Positions 58,385-64,000 of a stretch of DNA of 64,000 nt are shown piece by piece. A program made the translations under genes and the position numbers. Positions within the stretch are counted from its first letter, which is position 1, and every line of letters starts with the position of its first letter. The stretch is from contig NZ_BNBE01000001.1 of the NCBI RefSeq assembly GCF_014654895.1, positions 1,054,001-1,118,000 on the forward strand, given 5' to 3'. Below the pieces are notes generated by a model, which was given only the letters and a program-made list of their open reading frames with translations, searched no databases and was not told the origin of the DNA. This DNA comes from Streptomyces filamentosus (GTDB lineage: Bacteria; Actinomycetota; Actinomycetes; Streptomycetales; Streptomycetaceae).

Positions 58385-59860
58385 TTACGCGGCGAGCTTC
58401 GCCAGGGCCGCGTCGATGCGGGCCAGGGTCCTCTCCTTGCCCAGGATCTCCAGGGACTCGAAGAGGGGCAGGCCGACGGTGCGGCCGGTGACGGCGACGC
58501 GGACCGGGGCCTGGGCCTTGCCGAGCTTGAGGCCGTGGGCCTCGCCGGCGGCGAGGACCGCGCCCTTGAGCGACTCGGCGTCGTTCCAGTCGGCGGCGTC
58601 GAGCTTCTCGCGGGCGGTGGTGAGGAGGGCCGCGGGCTCGCCCTTCATCGCCTTGTCCCACGAGGGCTGGTCGAAGACCGGCTCGGGCAGGAAGAGGAAG
58701 TCGACGTTGGCCGTGATCTCGGAGAGCACGGTCAGCCGGGTCTGGGCGTAGGGGGCGATCCGCTCCCAGGCCGCGCGGTCGAAGTCCTCCGGCGCCCAGG
58801 GGGCGTGCGGGGCCCGGAGCCAGGGCTCGCAGGCATCGGCGAAGGCCTTCTCGTCCAGCATGCGGATGTGGTCCGCGTTGATGGACTCGGCCTTCTTGAG
58901 GTCGAAGCGGGCCGGGTTGGAGTTGACGTCGTCGATGTCGAACTTCGCGACCATGTCCTCGATCGAGAAGACGTCCTGGTCGGCGGAGAAGGACCAGCCG
59001 AGGAGCGAGAGGTAGTTCAGGAGGCCCTCGGGGAGGAAGCCGCGCTCCCGGTAGAGGTTGAGGGACGCCTGCGGGTCGCGCTTGGAGAGCTTCTTGTTGC
59101 CCTCGCCCATCACGTACGGCAGGTGGCCGAACTGCGGGATCTCCTTGGCGACGCCCAGCTCGATCAGCGCCTTGTACAGGGCGATCTGGCGGGGGGTGGA
59201 GGAGAGCAGGTCCTCGCCGCGCAGGACGTGGGTGATCTCCATCAGCGCGTCGTCGACCGGGTTGACCAGGGTGTACAGCGGGGCGCCGTTGGCGCGCACG
59301 ATGCCGTAGTCGGTGACGTTCTCCGGCTGGACGGTGATCTCGCCGCGGACCAGGTCGGTGAAGGTGGTCGCCTCGTCCGGCATCCGGAAGCGGACGATGT
59401 GGCTGCGGCCCTCGGCCTCGTACGCCTGCTTCCGCTCGTCCGTGAGGTCGCGGCAGTGGCCGTCGTAGCCCGAGGCGCGGCCGGCGGCGCGGGCCGCCTC
59501 GCGGCGCTCGTCGAGCTCCTCGGTGGTGCAGTAGCAGGGGTACGCGTAGCCGCCGGCGATCAGCTTGTCGGCGACGTCCTTGTAGAGGTCCATCCGCTGC
59601 GACTGGCGGTACGGCGCGTGCGGGCCGCCGATCTCGGGGCCCTCGTCCCAGGTGAAGCCGAGCCAGCGCATCGAGTCGAGCAGCTGCTGGTACGACTCCT
59701 CCGAGTCGCGCGCGGCGTCGGTGTCCTCGATGCGGAAGACGAACGTGCCCCCGTTGTGCCGGGCGAAGGCCCAGTTGAAGAGAGCGGTGCGGACCAGGCC
59801 CACGTGGGGGTTGCCGGTCGGCGAGGGACAGAAACGGACGCGGATATTCGCGTTAGCCAC
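58385..59860 (-). CDS. gltX: Glutamyl-tRNA synthetase
   Basis: This 491-aa class I synthetase charges tRNA-Glu and, as actinobacteria lack GlnRS, presumably also tRNA-Gln, to be converted by GatCAB. The HIGH-type motif is in SPTGNPHVGLVRTALFNW and the KMSKS-type motif is KLSKRD. A Cys-containing segment (CYCTTEELDERREAARAAGR) follows the Rossmann core. It overlaps the upstream FAH-family gene by eight bases. Five tRNA-Glu/Gln genes lie downstream on the same strand. Confidence 0.95.
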   Translation of the reverse strand: MANANIRVRFCPSPTGNPHVGLVRTALFNWAFARHNGGTFVFRIEDTDAARDSEESYQQLLDSMRWLGFTWDEGPEIGGPHAPYRQSQRMDLYKDVADKLIAGGYAYPCYCTTEELDERREAARAAGRASGYDGHCRDLTDERKQAYEAEGRSHIVRFRMPDEATTFTDLVRGEITVQPENVTDYGIVRANGAPLYTLVNPVDDALMEITHVLRGEDLLSSTPRQIALYKALIELGVAKEIPQFGHLPYVMGEGNKKLSKRDPQASLNLYRERGFLPEGLLNYLSLLGWSFSADQDVFSIEDMVAKFDIDDVNSNPARFDLKKAESINADHIRMLDEKAFADACEPWLRAPHAPWAPEDFDRAAWERIAPYAQTRLTVLSEITANVDFLFLPEPVFDQPSWDKAMKGEPAALLTTAREKLDAADWNDAESLKGAVLAAGEAHGLKLGKAQAPVRVAVTGRTVGLPLFESLEILGKERTLARIDAALAKLAA

Positions 59861-60638
59861 GCTTGATCACCTTGTTGGTGAGAGTGCCGATGCCTTCGAT
59901 GGTGACGGCGACCTCGTCGCCGACGGTGAGGGGGCCGACCCCGGCGGGGGTGCCGGTGAGGATGACGTCGCCCGGGAGCAGCGTCATGGCCTCGGTGATG
60001 TGGACGACCAGGTCCTCGATGGAGCGGATCATGTCGCTCGTCCGACCGAGCTGGCGTTGTTCGCCGTTGACCGTGGCCTGGACGGCGAGGTCGCTCGGGT
60101 CGAGGTCGGTCTCCACCCAGGGGCCCAGCGGGCAACTCGTGTCGAAGCCCTTGGCGCGGGCCCACTGGGCCTCGTTCCGCTGGACGTCGCGGGCGGTCAC
60201 GTCGTTGGCGCAGGTGTAGCCGAAGATCACGTCCTTGACGCGCTCCCGGGGCACCTCGCGGCACATGCGGCCGATCACCACGGCCAGTTCGGCCTCGTGG
60301 TGCAGCTCGCTGGAGAAGGAGGGGAACTCGATGGCGTCGCCGGGGCCGATCACCGAGGTGGTCGGCTTGAAGAAGGCGACCGGGACCTCAGGGACCTCGT
60401 TGCCGAGCTCCTCGGCGTGCTCCGCGTAGTTGCGGCCGATGGCCACGACCTTGTTGGGGAGCACCGGCGGCAGGAGGCGGACCTTGCTCAGCGGGACCTT
60501 GGTGCCGCTGAGCTCGAAGTCGGTGTACGGGATGCCCTTGATGATGTCGATGACCAGGCCGCCGGACTCGACGGTCCCCTCGCCCTCGACCGCGCCGAAG
60601 GCGACGTTGCCGTCGATGGAGAATCTGGCGATGCGCAC
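59853..60638 (-). CDS. Fumarylacetoacetate hydrolase-family protein
   Basis: This 261-aa FAH-family protein holds the metal-binding core HHEAELAVVIGR, FGYTCANDVTARDVQ, and ILTGTPAGVGPLTVGDEV. Members cleave C-C bonds of beta-diketo acids or act as oxaloacetate decarboxylases; the exact substrate is not decidable. Start ATG at 60638. The gene overlaps gltX by eight bases, so expression is coupled, a frequent arrangement in actinobacteria. Confidence 0.88.
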   Translation of the reverse strand: MRIARFSIDGNVAFGAVEGEGTVESGGLVIDIIKGIPYTDFELSGTKVPLSKVRLLPPVLPNKVVAIGRNYAEHAEELGNEVPEVPVAFFKPTTSVIGPGDAIEFPSFSSELHHEAELAVVIGRMCREVPRERVKDVIFGYTCANDVTARDVQRNEAQWARAKGFDTSCPLGPWVETDLDPSDLAVQATVNGEQRQLGRTSDMIRSIEDLVVHITEAMTLLPGDVILTGTPAGVGPLTVGDEVAVTIEGIGTLTNKVIKRG

Positions 60639-60709
60639 GAGTGCTGTCGCCCCTCACTTGGTACTGGCTGGAGTCTGACGCTCCAGGCTAACGCGGCGGG
60701 GGCGGCCGA

Positions 60710-60729
60710 CCGGCGGGGACGCCCGCCGG
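60710..60729 (-). terminator. Possible terminator after the 65-aa gene
   Basis: An 8-bp GC stem (60710-60717 with 60722-60729) with a 4-base loop lies 20 bases after the stop of the small repeat protein. It is weak compared with the other terminators here. Confidence 0.4.
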
Positions 60730-60748
60730 AGGGGCGGGGCCGGTCCGG

Positions 60749-60946
60749 TCAGACCTCGGCGAGGTAGGCCGGCACGTAGGGCGCGGGGGCCTGCATGAGG
60801 ACCGTGCGGCGCGGGTTGGCCGTGGTGCCGGGGAGCTCCGCCGCGTACTCGGGGGTGGCGCCGCGGCCGAGGTCGGCGGCGTCCGGGAGGTGGGCGAGCG
60901 TGGAGCGGCGCGGGTTGGCCGTGGTGGCGGGCGTGGGTGCAGTCAT
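60749..60946 (-). CDS. 65-aa protein with duplicated TTANPRR motif
   Basis: This small protein has two copies of TTANPRR(S/T)-x-L, at about residues 8-18 and 41-51. The DNA repeat behind the motif is 22 bases, identical at 60806-60827 and 60905-60926, 99 bases (33 codons) apart. Between the copies lies LPDAADLGRGATPEYAAELP; the C-terminus is Pro/Ala/Tyr-rich. GC3 is high, which supports real coding. No family is recognised; there is no signal peptide or Cys. It is divergent from cvnA1, so it may be linked to that signalling operon. A RiPP-like precursor is conceivable but no maturase is nearby. Confidence 0.7.
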   Translation of the reverse strand: MTAPTPATTANPRRSTLAHLPDAADLGRGATPEYAAELPGTTANPRRTVLMQAPAPYVPAYLAEV

Positions 60947-61517
60947 CGCGCTGGCAGACCTTGTTCCGGGACGGGCGCCCGTGGGGGCGCGAGGATGGGC
61001 TAAAGCGTCAGGCTAAATCAAGACGTTCCCTTCGAATGCATGGCCAAGACATCCACGGACGTGTGAGTTTGCTCACCACTGGGCGAATATTCCGGGCATT
61101 ACGGGCGTCGATGTCAGGTCACGGAAAGGGACATTCCGCCACTGAAGCATTTATTCCGCTCCTGATCATCGCGACTGGGACACTCGGGGACGCCCAGCCA
61201 TTGGAGGGGAAAAGTCCGAATCCTCCGTGATCATCTTCTACACGCGGTGATCTCCCGCGTACGGGTTGTCATCCCTTCTGCGGTACAGACCTCAGCCCTT
61301 GTTGGAGGTCCGGCACTGTGCTGGAATTCCCGCACCGCCGCGGGTTTCGACGCCGGCACGCAGGGGGCGCAACGCAGCGCCGGCCGAGTGGCGGAGAAGG
61401 GGGATCTGCGCCGGTCACCGACGACCACCCGGGGCGTGCCGACGCGCCCCGAAGACGCCGACACCGTCCTTCCGGTTTTCACCCGGAAGGACGCCTGGTC
61501 CAGAGGTTGCGACGCTA
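60947..61517. other. AT-richer divergent regulatory region upstream of cvnA1
   Basis: These 571 bases separate the 65-aa gene and cvnA1. From about 61010 to 61250 the sequence is clearly less GC-rich than the surroundings. It holds a GTGAG-TTTG-CTCAC inverted repeat (61063-61076), two TGATCATC direct repeats (about 61172 and 61229), and a weak plus-strand promoter (TTGTTG 61299-61304, 17 bases, TGGAAT 61322-61327). The 83-codon minus-strand frame at 61231-61482 is not convincing as a gene. Confidence 0.55.
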
Positions 61518-64000
61518 GTGCAGGGACGTTTCAAGAGGGATGGCGCGGGCTCCGCCCCGGCCCGCAAGGGCCGCGCGGAGGCTCCGGCGGAGCAGGAACC
61601 GCGTGCCGGGACCGATCGTGGTCCCGCGGCCCCGCACTCCGCCCAGCAGGCGCCCGGCCAGGGTGCCCAGGGCAGGAAGCGGGACAGGACCGCACGGCCG
61701 AACGGCGAGCCCGGCGAGGGCTCCGCACGCCGTTCCGGCCCGTCCGCCGCGCCCGGCGAGCAGGCCGGCGCGCCCGACGCCGGCGAGCGGCGCGGCGACA
61801 AGGGCGGCGCCCCGGCGGTCCCCGAGAACGCGGTCGGCCCCCGAATAGCCCTGCGCAACTGGCGCATCTCCACGCGCCTCGTGGCCCTGCTGACCCTCCC
61901 CGTGGTCGCGGCCACCTCCCTCGGCGGCATCCGCATCAGCGAGTCGCTCCAGGACATGGAGCAGCTCGACCACATGCAGCTGCTCACCAAGCTGACCCGT
62001 GAGGCGACCGGCCTCGCCCAGGCCCTCCAGGCCGAGCGCGACCTGTCCGCCGGTCCGCTGGCCAACGGCCGCCCGGCGAGCGACTACCAGGTCGCCAACC
62101 CGCGCCGGAACACGGACCGCAAGTACAACGCCTTCCTCGACGCCACCCGCGAGGTGCCCAGCGCCGCGGAGGACGAGGCGCTGCGGAGCATCCGCTCCAA
62201 CGTCAACACCATCGCCTCCCAGGTGCTGGACCTCCACAACATCCGGACGAACGCCTACAAGGGCGGCGTCTCGCACTCGGTGACGGTCGAGGCCTACAGC
62301 CGGCTCATCCGCTCGCTGCTCAGCCTGTCCCAGGACATGGCGCAGGCGACCAGCAACCCCGACATGATCAAGCGGACCCGCGCGCTCGCCGCGTTCTCGT
62401 CCGCCAAGGAGTACGCCTCCATCCAGCAGGCGATCATCGCGGGCGCCCTGCCGGCCAGCGACAAGACCTCCGGCCGGATCCAGCCCGGTGACCGCCTCTA
62501 CGGCGAGGCCGCGCTCAACGGCGAGAGCAACGCCTTCAAGTCCTTCACCGCGGTCTACGAGGCGACCGGCGGCCAGGCCACCGACCTCACCGACTCGCTG
62601 CGCTCCGGCAACCCCACGATCGTGGACGCCGAGAAGTACGCCGAGCGCGTGCTGAAGTCCGACGAGGCCATGCCCAGCGGCGCCAAGCGCGGCTACCTCA
62701 ACTTCACCGACGAGTACGAGACCAAGATCGCGGCCATGGGCCGCATCGAGAACGAACTCCTCGGCGACATGGAGACGATGGCGCGTGAGCTGCGGCAGGA
62801 GTCGCAGCGCGAGGCCATCATCAACGGTGCGCTGATCCTCCTCGTCCTCGGCGTCTCGCTCGTCGGCGCCTTCGTCGTGGCCCGGTCCATGATCCGCTCG
62901 CTGCGCCGCCTCCAGGACACCGCGACCAAGGTCGCCCAGGAACGCCTGCCCGAGCTGGTCAAGCAGCTCTCCGAGTCCGACCCGCAGGACGTCGACACCT
63001 CCGTCGAGTCCGTCGGCGTGCACTCCCGCGACGAGATCGGCCAGGTGGCCGCGGCCTTCGACGACGTGCACCGCGAGGCCGTCCGCCTCGCCGCCGAGCA
63101 GGCCCTCCTCCGGGGCAACGTCAACGCGATGTTCACCAACCTCTCGCGCCGTTCGCAGGGCCTCATCCAGCGCCAGCTCTCGCTCATCTCCGAGCTGGAG
63201 TCCCGCGAGGCCGACCCGGACCAGCTCTCCTCGCTCTTCAAGCTGGACCACCTCGCGACCCGTATGCGCCGGAACGGCGAGAACCTCCTCGTCCTCGCCG
63301 GCGAGGAGCCGGGCCGCCGGTGGACCCGCCCGGTCCCGCTGGTCGACGTGCTCCGCGCCGCCGCCTCCGAGGTGGAGCAGTACGAGCGCATCGAACTGGC
63401 CGCGGTCCCGGCGACGGACGTCGCCGGCCGGGTCGTCAACGACCTCGTGCACCTCCTCGCCGAGCTGCTGGAGAACGCCACCTCGTTCTCCTCCCCGCAG
63501 ACCAAGGTCCGGGTCACCGGTCACGCGCTGCCCGACGGCCGCGTGCTCGTCGAGATCCACGACACCGGCATCGGCCTCTCCCCCGAGGACCTGGCGGCGA
63601 TCAACGAGCGGCTCGCCTCGCCGCCCACCGTGGACGTCTCCGTCTCCCGCCGCATGGGCCTCTTCGTGGTCGGCCGCCTGTCCCTGCGGCACGGCATCCG
63701 GATCCAGCTGCGTCCGTCCGACTCGGGCGGCACCACCGCGCTCGTCATGCTGCCGGTCGACGTCGCCCAGGGCGGCCGCAAGCCGGCCCCGAAGACGGGT
63801 CCCGGCTCCCAGGGCCCGGCCCCGCAGGGCGGCAACGCCCCCGGCGGGCGGCTCCCCGGCGGCCCCGGCGCGGCCGGTGGTCCCGGTGCGGGCGGTCCCG
63901 GCGGTCGTCCGGGCCTCGGCGGTCCGGCGGCCCCGGCCGGCCGGCTCGGCGCCGGTCCCGGTGCCGCGCGTCCCCAGGTCGGTCCCGCGGGCGGTCCGCG
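61518..64000 (+). CDS. cvnA1: Conservon sensor protein CvnA (3' end outside window)
   Basis: CvnA is the membrane sensor of a conservon, a Streptomyces operon (cvnABCD) linking a histidine-kinase-like protein to roadblock and Ras-like GTPases. About 827 codons are visible. A charged disordered N-terminus (1-110) precedes TM1 (about 118-136, LVALLTLPVVAATSLGG), a NIT-type extracytoplasmic sensor domain (about 137-430), TM2 (AIINGALILLVLGVSLVGAFVV) and HAMP. The kinase part has LLAELLENATSFSSP (N box) and IHDTGIGLSPED (G box) but a non-standard dimerisation region (LFKLDHLATRMRRNGENLLVLA) without a canonical H box. The C-terminus becomes Gly/Pro-rich and runs off the window. The start is GTG at 61518 (MQGRFKRDG). 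Synteny with gltX suggests copy 1. Confidence 0.88.
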   Translation, partial: MQGRFKRDGAGSAPARKGRAEAPAEQEPRAGTDRGPAAPHSAQQAPGQGAQGRKRDRTARPNGEPGEGSARRSGPSAAPGEQAGAPDAGERRGDKGGAPAVPENAVGPRIALRNWRISTRLVALLTLPVVAATSLGGIRISESLQDMEQLDHMQLLTKLTREATGLAQALQAERDLSAGPLANGRPASDYQVANPRRNTDRKYNAFLDATREVPSAAEDEALRSIRSNVNTIASQVLDLHNIRTNAYKGGVSHSVTVEAYSRLIRSLLSLSQDMAQATSNPDMIKRTRALAAFSSAKEYASIQQAIIAGALPASDKTSGRIQPGDRLYGEAALNGESNAFKSFTAVYEATGGQATDLTDSLRSGNPTIVDAEKYAERVLKSDEAMPSGAKRGYLNFTDEYETKIAAMGRIENELLGDMETMARELRQESQREAIINGALILLVLGVSLVGAFVVARSMIRSLRRLQDTATKVAQERLPELVKQLSESDPQDVDTSVESVGVHSRDEIGQVAAAFDDVHREAVRLAAEQALLRGNVNAMFTNLSRRSQGLIQRQLSLISELESREADPDQLSSLFKLDHLATRMRRNGENLLVLAGEEPGRRWTRPVPLVDVLRAAASEVEQYERIELAAVPATDVAGRVVNDLVHLLAELLENATSFSSPQTKVRVTGHALPDGRVLVEIHDTGIGLSPEDLAAINERLASPPTVDVSVSRRMGLFVVGRLSLRHGIRIQLRPSDSGGTTALVMLPVDVAQGGRKPAPKTGPGSQGPAPQGGNAPGGRLPGGPGAAGGPGAGGPGGRPGLGGPAAPAGRLGAGPGAARPQVGPAGGP

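What the first reader, a model, noticed from the sequence alone, without database searches (positions are those of the whole stretch)
60749..60946. Small repeat protein (TTANPRR twice) divergent from a conservon sensor
The 65-aa protein consists of two near-identical TTANPRR(S/T)xL units 33 codons apart, coded by a 22-base exact direct repeat. Such short duplicated motifs occur in signalling peptides, RiPP precursors and phospho-docking proteins. I know no family for it. Its location next to cvnA1 is suggestive because Cvn inputs are unknown.
Basis: partly seen in the sequence, partly recalled or inferred. Interest (0 to 1): 0.6.

Follow-up and report, generated by a model that had tools for sequence, protein, structure and literature searches.

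The report
Twin-motif small protein beside cvn1
Nearly every sampled relative of Streptomyces carries a tiny, apparently unstructured, unnamed protein that keeps two copies of one short motif (ANPRRT) and sits back to back with the cvn1 signalling operon, which makes it a candidate missing partner of a poorly understood developmental switch.

Summary
The 65-aa ORF (60946 to 60749, minus strand) carries TTANPRRSTL and TTANPRRTVL 33 codons apart, coded by a 22-base exact repeat. It is a real gene family: 290 of 297 Streptomycetaceae genomes match, and 5 of the other 7 hold a divergent two-motif version at the same place; outside the family 1 of 268 genomes matched, weakly. No Pfam, NCBIfam, PHROG or PDB family fits. 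dN/dS is 0.09 and 0.16 in the motifs, 0.64-1.23 elsewhere; AlphaFold predicts no fold. It looks like a disordered bivalent docking protein. It lies divergent from cvnA1 in 67 of 67 long loci. Rearrangement (5 genomes) or insertion (2) separates it from the FAA-hydrolase gene; nothing seen separates it from cvnA1. The shared 570-base intergenic region is conserved in blocks, and papers report the cvn1 promoter as bound by BldC, BldD and WhiA/WhiB. Two genomes keep cvn1 but lack the gene, so it is not indispensable. Best reading (moderate confidence): a soluble accessory of the Cvn1 system that uses two identical motifs to engage a dimeric partner. The partner is not shown. RiPP-precursor and FAH-gltX-leader readings are disfavoured.

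The parts
60749..60946 (-). small twin-motif protein gene, 65 aa, ATG start
   Evidence: alignment A1; profile search
60896..60925 (-). motif 1, TTANPRRSTL (residues 8-17)
   Evidence: A, N, P and the second R kept in 121 of 121 sequences (the set was chosen with a pattern that asks for the motif)
60797..60826 (-). motif 2, TTANPRRTVL (residues 41-50)
   Evidence: T, A, N and the second R kept in 121 of 121 sequences (same caveat)
60905..60926 (.). 22-base exact direct repeat, copy in motif 1
60806..60827 (.). 22-base exact direct repeat, copy in motif 2
60959..60962 (-). Shine-Dalgarno-like AAGG before the ATG; an AGG-type sequence lies near this place in most relatives
60999..61017 (-). conserved promoter-like block upstream of the small gene (TTTAGCCTGACGCTTTAGC on the minus strand)
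   Evidence: function inferred only
61062..61077 (.). palindrome TGTGAGTTTGCTCACC (GTG-N8-CAC, CRP/GlxR-like); strict form GTGAG-N4-CTCAC within 260 nt of the small gene in 86 of 117 loci, 0.04-0.15 expected from shuffles
   Evidence: motif comparison from PMC10033298 passages
61179..61183 (+). GACAC, WhiA-type site in a conserved block
   Evidence: GACAC consensus from PMC3781837 passages
61297..61330 (.). strongly conserved block CCTTGTTGGAGGTCCGGCACTGTGCTGGAATTCC
   Evidence: function unknown
61460..61464 (+). GACAC, WhiA-type site in a conserved block (CGACACCGTCC)
61497..61529 (+). strongly conserved cvnA1 start region
61518..64000 (+). cvnA1, NIT-HAMP-HATPase_c sensor kinase; runs off the window; cvnB1 (Roadblock), cvnC1 (DUF742), cvnD1 follow in the genome (L100)
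59853..60638 (-). FAA-hydrolase family gene (FAH) downstream of the small gene
58385..59860 (-). gltX

Best explanation
The gene encodes an intrinsically disordered, cytosolic, bivalent docking protein that belongs to the cvn1 signalling module of Streptomycetaceae. Shown by sequence: a real protein-coding family; two motifs (T/I-A-N-P-R-R-T/S-x-L) under strong purifying selection in a near-neutral background; a family-wide position divergent from cvnA1; a conserved shared intergenic region; no secretion or membrane segment. Inferred: the two motifs bind equivalent sites on a homodimeric partner, most likely in the Cvn1 complex (CvnA1 kinase dimer or CvnB1 Roadblock dimer), so that the small protein clamps, activates or inhibits the complex during the developmental stages set by the shared regulators (BldC, BldD, WhiA/WhiB). 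The T/S after RR may be a phospho-switch.
For: Family-wide presence, one match in each matching genome (290 of 297, plus 5 divergent ones). Motif dN/dS 0.09 and 0.16 against 0.64-1.23 in the six other segments (121 sequences, 2726 related pairs). Motif-to-motif spacing 30-51 residues, 33 in 74 of 118, so a flexible tether. AlphaFold mean pLDDT 63.8, pTM 0.19, no fold. No hydrophobic segment in 117 of 118 by a hydropathy scan. cvnA1 divergent next to it in 16 of 16 named-organism loci L024-L039, 40 of 40 loci L100-L139, 5 of 5 divergent loci L141-L145 and 6 of 6 further loci L156-L161; one genome is in there twice (L038 and L114). A rearrangement shared by 5 genomes left the small gene with cvn1 and away from FAH. 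Intergenic conservation. BldC, BldD and WhiAB reported at the cvn1 promoter (PMC6428758 and PMC5859096, passages). The distance matrix of the small protein correlates most with the CvnA1 sensor (Spearman 0.83; partial 0.67 given gltX; 39 loci).
Against: No interaction, expression or phenotype data. Two genomes (G010, G054) keep FAH, gltX and cvn1 but lack the gene. Conserved adjacency can reflect a shared regulatory region only. The distance correlation has no control for evolutionary rate; FAH also correlates (0.755), CvnB1 and CvnD1 less (0.64, 0.54), which does not favour CvnB1 as partner. The NIT sensor domain is extracytoplasmic by family knowledge, whereas the small protein has no export signal. 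The motif counts come from sequences picked partly by a motif pattern.
Confidence: 0.42

Rival explanations
1. A developmental small protein that only shares the bidirectional promoter region with cvn1 and docks on an unrelated dimeric or clustered partner, for example a cell-division, chromosome or transcription factor.
For: The intergenic region is long and holds separate conserved blocks near each gene. cvn1 survives without the small gene in G010 and G054. No second copy of the motif was found in the window's genome, so no shared partner can be read off.
Against: The small gene stayed with cvn1 through the one rearrangement seen, although shared control alone could also explain that.
Confidence: 0.35
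2. A phosphorylation-regulated substrate or decoy: the conserved T/S after RR in each motif is phosphorylated by a Ser/Thr kinase and the phospho-form is bound by a reader domain.
For: The position is T or S in 121 of 121 for motif 1 (110 T, 11 S) and T in 120 of 121 for motif 2 (one I) (the anchoring pattern asked for T, S or I here).
Against: The preceding A-N-P is about equally conserved, which a kinase site alone does not need; no phosphoproteome data were accessible.
Confidence: 0.12
3. A precursor of an exported or modified peptide (RiPP or signalling peptide cut at the dibasic RR sites).
For: Two short repeated units with dibasic residues.
Against: No signal or membrane segment in 117 of 118. 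The usual flanking genes are gltX, FAA hydrolase and cvnA1-D1. The two units differ consistently just outside the shared core.
Confidence: 0.05
4. A leader or regulatory peptide of the FAH-gltX transcript.
For: It is the first gene in the FAH-gltX direction, 82-250 nt before FAH (p10-p90 of 112 of 118 loci).
Against: In 5 genomes a rearrangement puts FAH elsewhere and the protein is retained; in two more FAH starts about 1.8 kb further on. No attenuation-like run of one amino acid, no Rfam match in 60500-61700, and the first motif is far from the C-terminus.
Confidence: 0.03

Closest known systems
CvnE (P450) and CvnF (GAF) conservon accessory proteins
   Same: Extra component linked to a conservon (PMC13343842: abstract, section 6 and passages).
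   Different: Those follow the cvnA-D core, are folded P450 or GAF proteins, and accompany CvnA proteins that lack a sensory domain; this one is divergent, tiny, predicted disordered, and beside a NIT-type CvnA1.
Small two-component-system modulator proteins (Sda, PmrD, MgrB, SafA; recalled)
   Same: Tiny proteins that tune a sensor kinase; this is what it would work like.
   Different: Similarity not tested here; no double motif recalled; several of those are membrane proteins.
Bacterial short-linear-motif proteins (SSB tail, clamp-binding motifs; recalled)
   Same: Short conserved motif in a disordered chain.
   Different: Motif differs, and here the two copies would make it bivalent. Recalled, not tested.

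Membership tests
Conservon accessory protein (CvnE/CvnF type) | P450 or GAF domain | tested here: not met
   Of 39 members scanned against Pfam at E<=1, two single-member chance-level matches (DUF7311, HTH_43) and nothing else; none
Conservon accessory protein (CvnE/CvnF type) | Follows the cvnA-D core in the operon | tested here: not met
   Divergent, upstream of cvnA1
Conservon accessory protein (CvnE/CvnF type) | Partner CvnA lacks a sensory domain | tested here: not met
   CvnA1 of this genome has NIT, E=7e-42
Component of the Cvn1 system (any type) | Constant genomic linkage to cvn1 | tested here: met
   67 of 67 long loci: 16, 40, 5, 6; one genome counted twice
Component of the Cvn1 system (any type) | Always present where cvn1 is present | tested here: not met
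   G010 and G054 have cvn1 without it
Component of the Cvn1 system (any type) | Physical or genetic interaction with CvnA1-D1 | not testable with these tools
   needs two-hybrid, pull-down or epistasis
RiPP precursor | Modifying enzymes or exporter next door | tested here: not met
   Neighbours are gltX, FAA hydrolase, cvnA1-D1 in the window's genome and in nearly all loci L100-L139
RiPP precursor | Processed, modified product | not testable with these tools
   needs mass spectrometry
FAH-gltX leader peptide | Obligate position upstream of FAH-gltX | tested here: not met
   5 genomes with FAH elsewhere keep the gene
Secreted or membrane peptide | Hydrophobic segment or signal peptide | tested here: not met
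   Maximum 17-residue hydropathy 0.88 in the window protein; above 1.6 in 1 of 118; no signal-peptide program was run

The most novel reading that the evidence does not exclude
A previously undescribed core protein family of Streptomycetaceae is a dedicated soluble ligand of an actinobacterial G-protein (conservon) system: a disordered tether whose two identical ANPRRT motifs bridge the two halves of the Cvn1 complex, so that its dosage, set by the divergent developmental promoter, gates the switch from inside the cell.
Probability: 0.28. Interest if true: 0.8.

Novelty: new variant of a known kind. Interest (0 to 1): 0.6.

Why it matters
Inputs and partners of conservons are largely unknown, and CvnA1 is reported to promote aerial growth and antibiotic production (PMC9739842 passages). 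A nearly family-wide, one-copy gene with two strongly conserved motifs beside cvn1 gives a compact handle: a deletion, a motif swap or a peptide pull-down can test whether Cvn1 has a dedicated intracellular ligand. If the partner is elsewhere, the motif still reveals an unknown docking site kept in nearly all sampled Streptomycetaceae. It also means that ChIP peaks assigned to cvnA1 may report control of a second, overlooked gene.

Tried and rejected
Motif shared with the sensor: CvnA1 of the window has VANPRRNTDR in its sensor region, but ANPR(R/K) stands there in only 9 of 56 aligned loci, all close to the window, so I take it as chance. Other copies of the motif in the window's genome: none convincing. 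A 24-base codon pattern with up to 3 mismatches matched exactly only at motif 2; motif 1 had 2 mismatches, as did 8 unrelated places, and the counts were close to the reversed-pattern control. An exact degenerate ANPRRT pattern hit motif 2 and three other places, two of which code Ser in place of an Arg and one of which is read in a short stretch between stops. Outside the family: one weak match in the class sample (G342, E 2e-4), whose fetched stretch shows no TANPxR motif, FAH or cvn. Plasmids and phages: no match. RNA family in 60500-61700: none. Consensus sigma-70 promoter or terminator in 60600-61560: none. The 'absent' genomes G041, G057, G068, G059 and G077 turned out to be divergent members; G177 (71% complete) and G001 (79% complete) lack a close FAH match, so the locus is probably unassembled.

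Rows dropped and bias: the 118-sequence counts used a pattern that demands the motif; I added three variants found by the profile (L107, L160, L161) for the 121-sequence counts, and the anchoring there again asks for AN, the second R and T/S/I, so invariance is partly by construction. Left out were L104 (no start chosen by my rule; both motifs present), L118 (only the second motif intact in the open frame, the first reads HRQPRRTTL; genome 76% complete; against invariance unless it is a sequencing error) and L015 (contig edge). Residues were looked at only in fetched loci, not in every one of the 290 matching genomes. The correlation used 39 of 66 loci: six were dropped beforehand and 21 lacked one of the eight proteins. 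An earlier dN/dS with a full alignment gave 0.12 and 0.90.

Not done: no multimer prediction is offered by the tools; supplementary files of papers were not available; no transcript or proteome data were seen.

Full report
What was checked first. The ORF at 60946-60749 on the minus strand translates to 65 residues with TTANPRRSTL and TTANPRRTVL 33 codons apart, coded by a 22-base exact direct repeat. Its start lies about 570 bases from the GTG start of cvnA1 (61518), which reads the other way. CvnA1 has NIT, HAMP and HATPase_c domains, followed by Roadblock (CvnB1), DUF742 (CvnC1) and an ATP_bind_1-family protein (CvnD1). Downstream of the small gene, in its own direction, lie an FAA-hydrolase gene (FAH) and gltX.

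It is a real family. A single-sequence search matched 23 of 25 genomes of the window's family, and none of 16 others, among 41 relatives. A scan of GTDB contigs gave 16 loci with record titles, among them Streptomyces, Actinacidiphila and Streptantibioticus. All 39 loci carried both motifs in one frame, usually with an AGG-type Shine-Dalgarno sequence before an ATG or GTG start (alignment A1). The profile matched 290 of 297 Streptomycetaceae genomes, one match in each, in 15 of 17 genera. In a class-wide sample it matched 29 of 296 genomes: 28 of the window's own genus and 1 of the 268 others (G342, E 2e-4), whose fetched stretch shows no TANPxR motif, FAH or cvn. Of the 7 unmatched family genomes, 5 (genera g7 and g10) hold a divergent two-motif version between FAH and cvnA1. 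G177 is 71% complete with no close FAH match. G054 has the FAH, gltX and cvn1 block but no small gene. G010, from the first search, also has the block without the gene, although the GTGAGCAAACTCAC palindrome remains upstream of its FAH. No family in Pfam, NCBIfam or PHROGs and no PDB chain matches (two single-member Pfam matches at E 0.03-0.09 are chance-level). Plasmid and phage collections have none.

How it evolves. Over 121 sequences, A, N, P and the second R of motif 1, and T, A, N and the second R of motif 2, are kept in all; P of motif 2 in 120; the first R varies (R, K, Q, L, N, E); the following residue is T or S in 121 (motif 1) and T in 120 (motif 2). These sequences were picked mostly by a pattern that asks for the motif, with three variants added and three loci left out (see Tried and rejected), so exact invariance is partly by construction; one left-out locus, L118, has a broken first motif in a 76% complete genome. 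Pairwise counting gives dN/dS 0.09 for motif 1 and 0.16 for motif 2, against 0.64-1.23 for the other six segments (2726 pairs, related sequences counted many times). The spacing between the motifs is 33 residues in 74 of 118 and ranges from 30 to 51. AlphaFold on 17 sequences gave mean pLDDT 63.8 and pTM 0.19 with no fold. No hydrophobic segment is present in 117 of 118. The simplest reading is a disordered tether with two equal docking motifs. The exact 22-base DNA repeat is a local feature: the two copies of the 18 bases for xANPRR are identical in 6 of 118.

Where it sits. cvnA1 lies divergent next to the small gene in 16 of 16 loci L024-L039, 40 of 40 loci L100-L139, the window included, 5 of 5 divergent loci L141-L145 and 6 of 6 further loci L156-L161. 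That is 67 loci, with one genome in twice (L038 and L114). The distance from the small start to the cvnA1 start is 521-603 bases (p10-p90, 117 of 118 measured); from the small stop to FAH it is 82-250 (112 of 118 measured; in the other 6 FAH was not found although more than 1.1 kb was at hand). In L036 (Streptomyces albus), L156, L157, L158 and L161 the small gene is followed by an opposing gene shared by all five, so this is probably one event; in two of these genomes, G152 and G083, FAH lies about 11-12 kb away on the far side of the cvn block, as after an inversion that carried the small gene with cvn1. In L139 and L159 FAH starts about 1.8 kb after the small gene. No break between the small gene and cvnA1 was seen. 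In the four genomes of other families of the order that I looked at, FAH has no cvnA in the fetched stretch and no small gene beside it.

Regulation. The intergenic region is conserved in blocks across 117 loci. Near the small gene are TTTAGCCTGACGCTTTA and, about 116 bases upstream of its start in the window, the palindrome GTGAGCAAACTCAC; the strict form GTGAG-N4-CTCAC lies within 260 nt in 86 of 117 loci against 0.04-0.15 expected from shuffles: 69 of 73 unnamed loci of the window's genus, 11 of 16 named loci and 6 of 28 loci of other genera. It fits GTG-N8-CAC, the GlxR motif, and resembles, with a mismatch, the Streptomyces Crp motif (PMC10033298, passages). Near cvnA1 are CGACACCGTCC and a strongly conserved start region; GACAC is the WhiA consensus (PMC3781837, passages; that paper's main text does not mention cvn). 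Papers report BldC and BldD binding at cvnA1 and WhiAB at the cvn1 promoter (PMC6428758, passages; PMC5859096, passages; PMC4850268, one supplementary-figure legend), and a cvn1 mutant impaired in aerial growth (cited in PMC6428758; the original was not read). Which of the two genes these sites control is not known from what I saw.

Mechanism. The evidence supports a bivalent docking protein of the cvn1 module; that the partner is CvnA1 or CvnB1, both expected to be dimers from family knowledge, is inference. A rough distance comparison over 39 loci ranks the CvnA1 sensor first (Spearman 0.83), then the CvnA1 kinase part (0.77), FAH (0.755), CvnC1 (0.71), gltX (0.66), CvnB1 (0.64) and CvnD1 (0.54); fast-evolving proteins tend to correlate better in such tests and I ran no rate control. 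The conserved T/S after RR allows a phospho-switch. Against a tight Cvn1 role stand the two genomes with cvn1 and without the gene.

Known or not. I found no paper on this protein. Searches of the held PMC library for SCO5545, for guessed neighbouring locus tags and for 'ANPRR' with Streptomyces returned 0 papers; one search returned 4 papers, none holding SCO5545; conservon papers came as listings, of which I read passages only. Subscription papers and supplements are outside that library. SCO5544 is CvnA1 (PMC9739842, passages) and SCO5546 is a widely conserved hypothetical protein (PMC3224560, one table passage), which fits FAH; that the small gene is SCO5545 is inferred from numbering. Published conservon accessories are CvnE and CvnF (PMC13343842, abstract, section 6 and passages), which this is not. 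Passages of PMC2374992, PMC8510531 and PMC12175524 were also seen; the first and last show cvn1 expression changing with ppGpp and in co-culture, and none mentions this gene in the passages shown.

Noticed in passing
window 61062-61077: CRP/GlxR-like palindrome TGTGAGTTTGCTCACC upstream of the small gene: strict form in 69 of 73 unnamed loci of the window's genus and 6 of 28 of other genera; it remains in G010 where the gene is lost.
   Followed up: partly
window 61297-61330: Strongly conserved block CCTTGTTGGAGGTCCGGCACTGTGCTGGAATTCC inside the intergenic region, far from both genes (9-mers in 80-104 of 117 loci); function unknown, possibly a regulator site or a third transcript.
   Followed up: no
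window 61497-61529: The region before and at the cvnA1 start (GGTCCAGAGGTTGCGACGCTAGTGCAGGGACGT) is kept at the DNA level, its 9-mers in 102-115 of 117 loci, although most of it is non-coding.
   Followed up: partly
L104 7132: One genus (g11) has a further TANPRRT reading 84 nt upstream of motif 1 in the same open frame, before the usual start codon; possibly a third motif.
   Followed up: no
L024: The record named Microtetraspora glauca NRRL B-3735 carries a 94% identical protein and the same Streptomyces gene order, so the record's organism name looks wrong.
   Followed up: no
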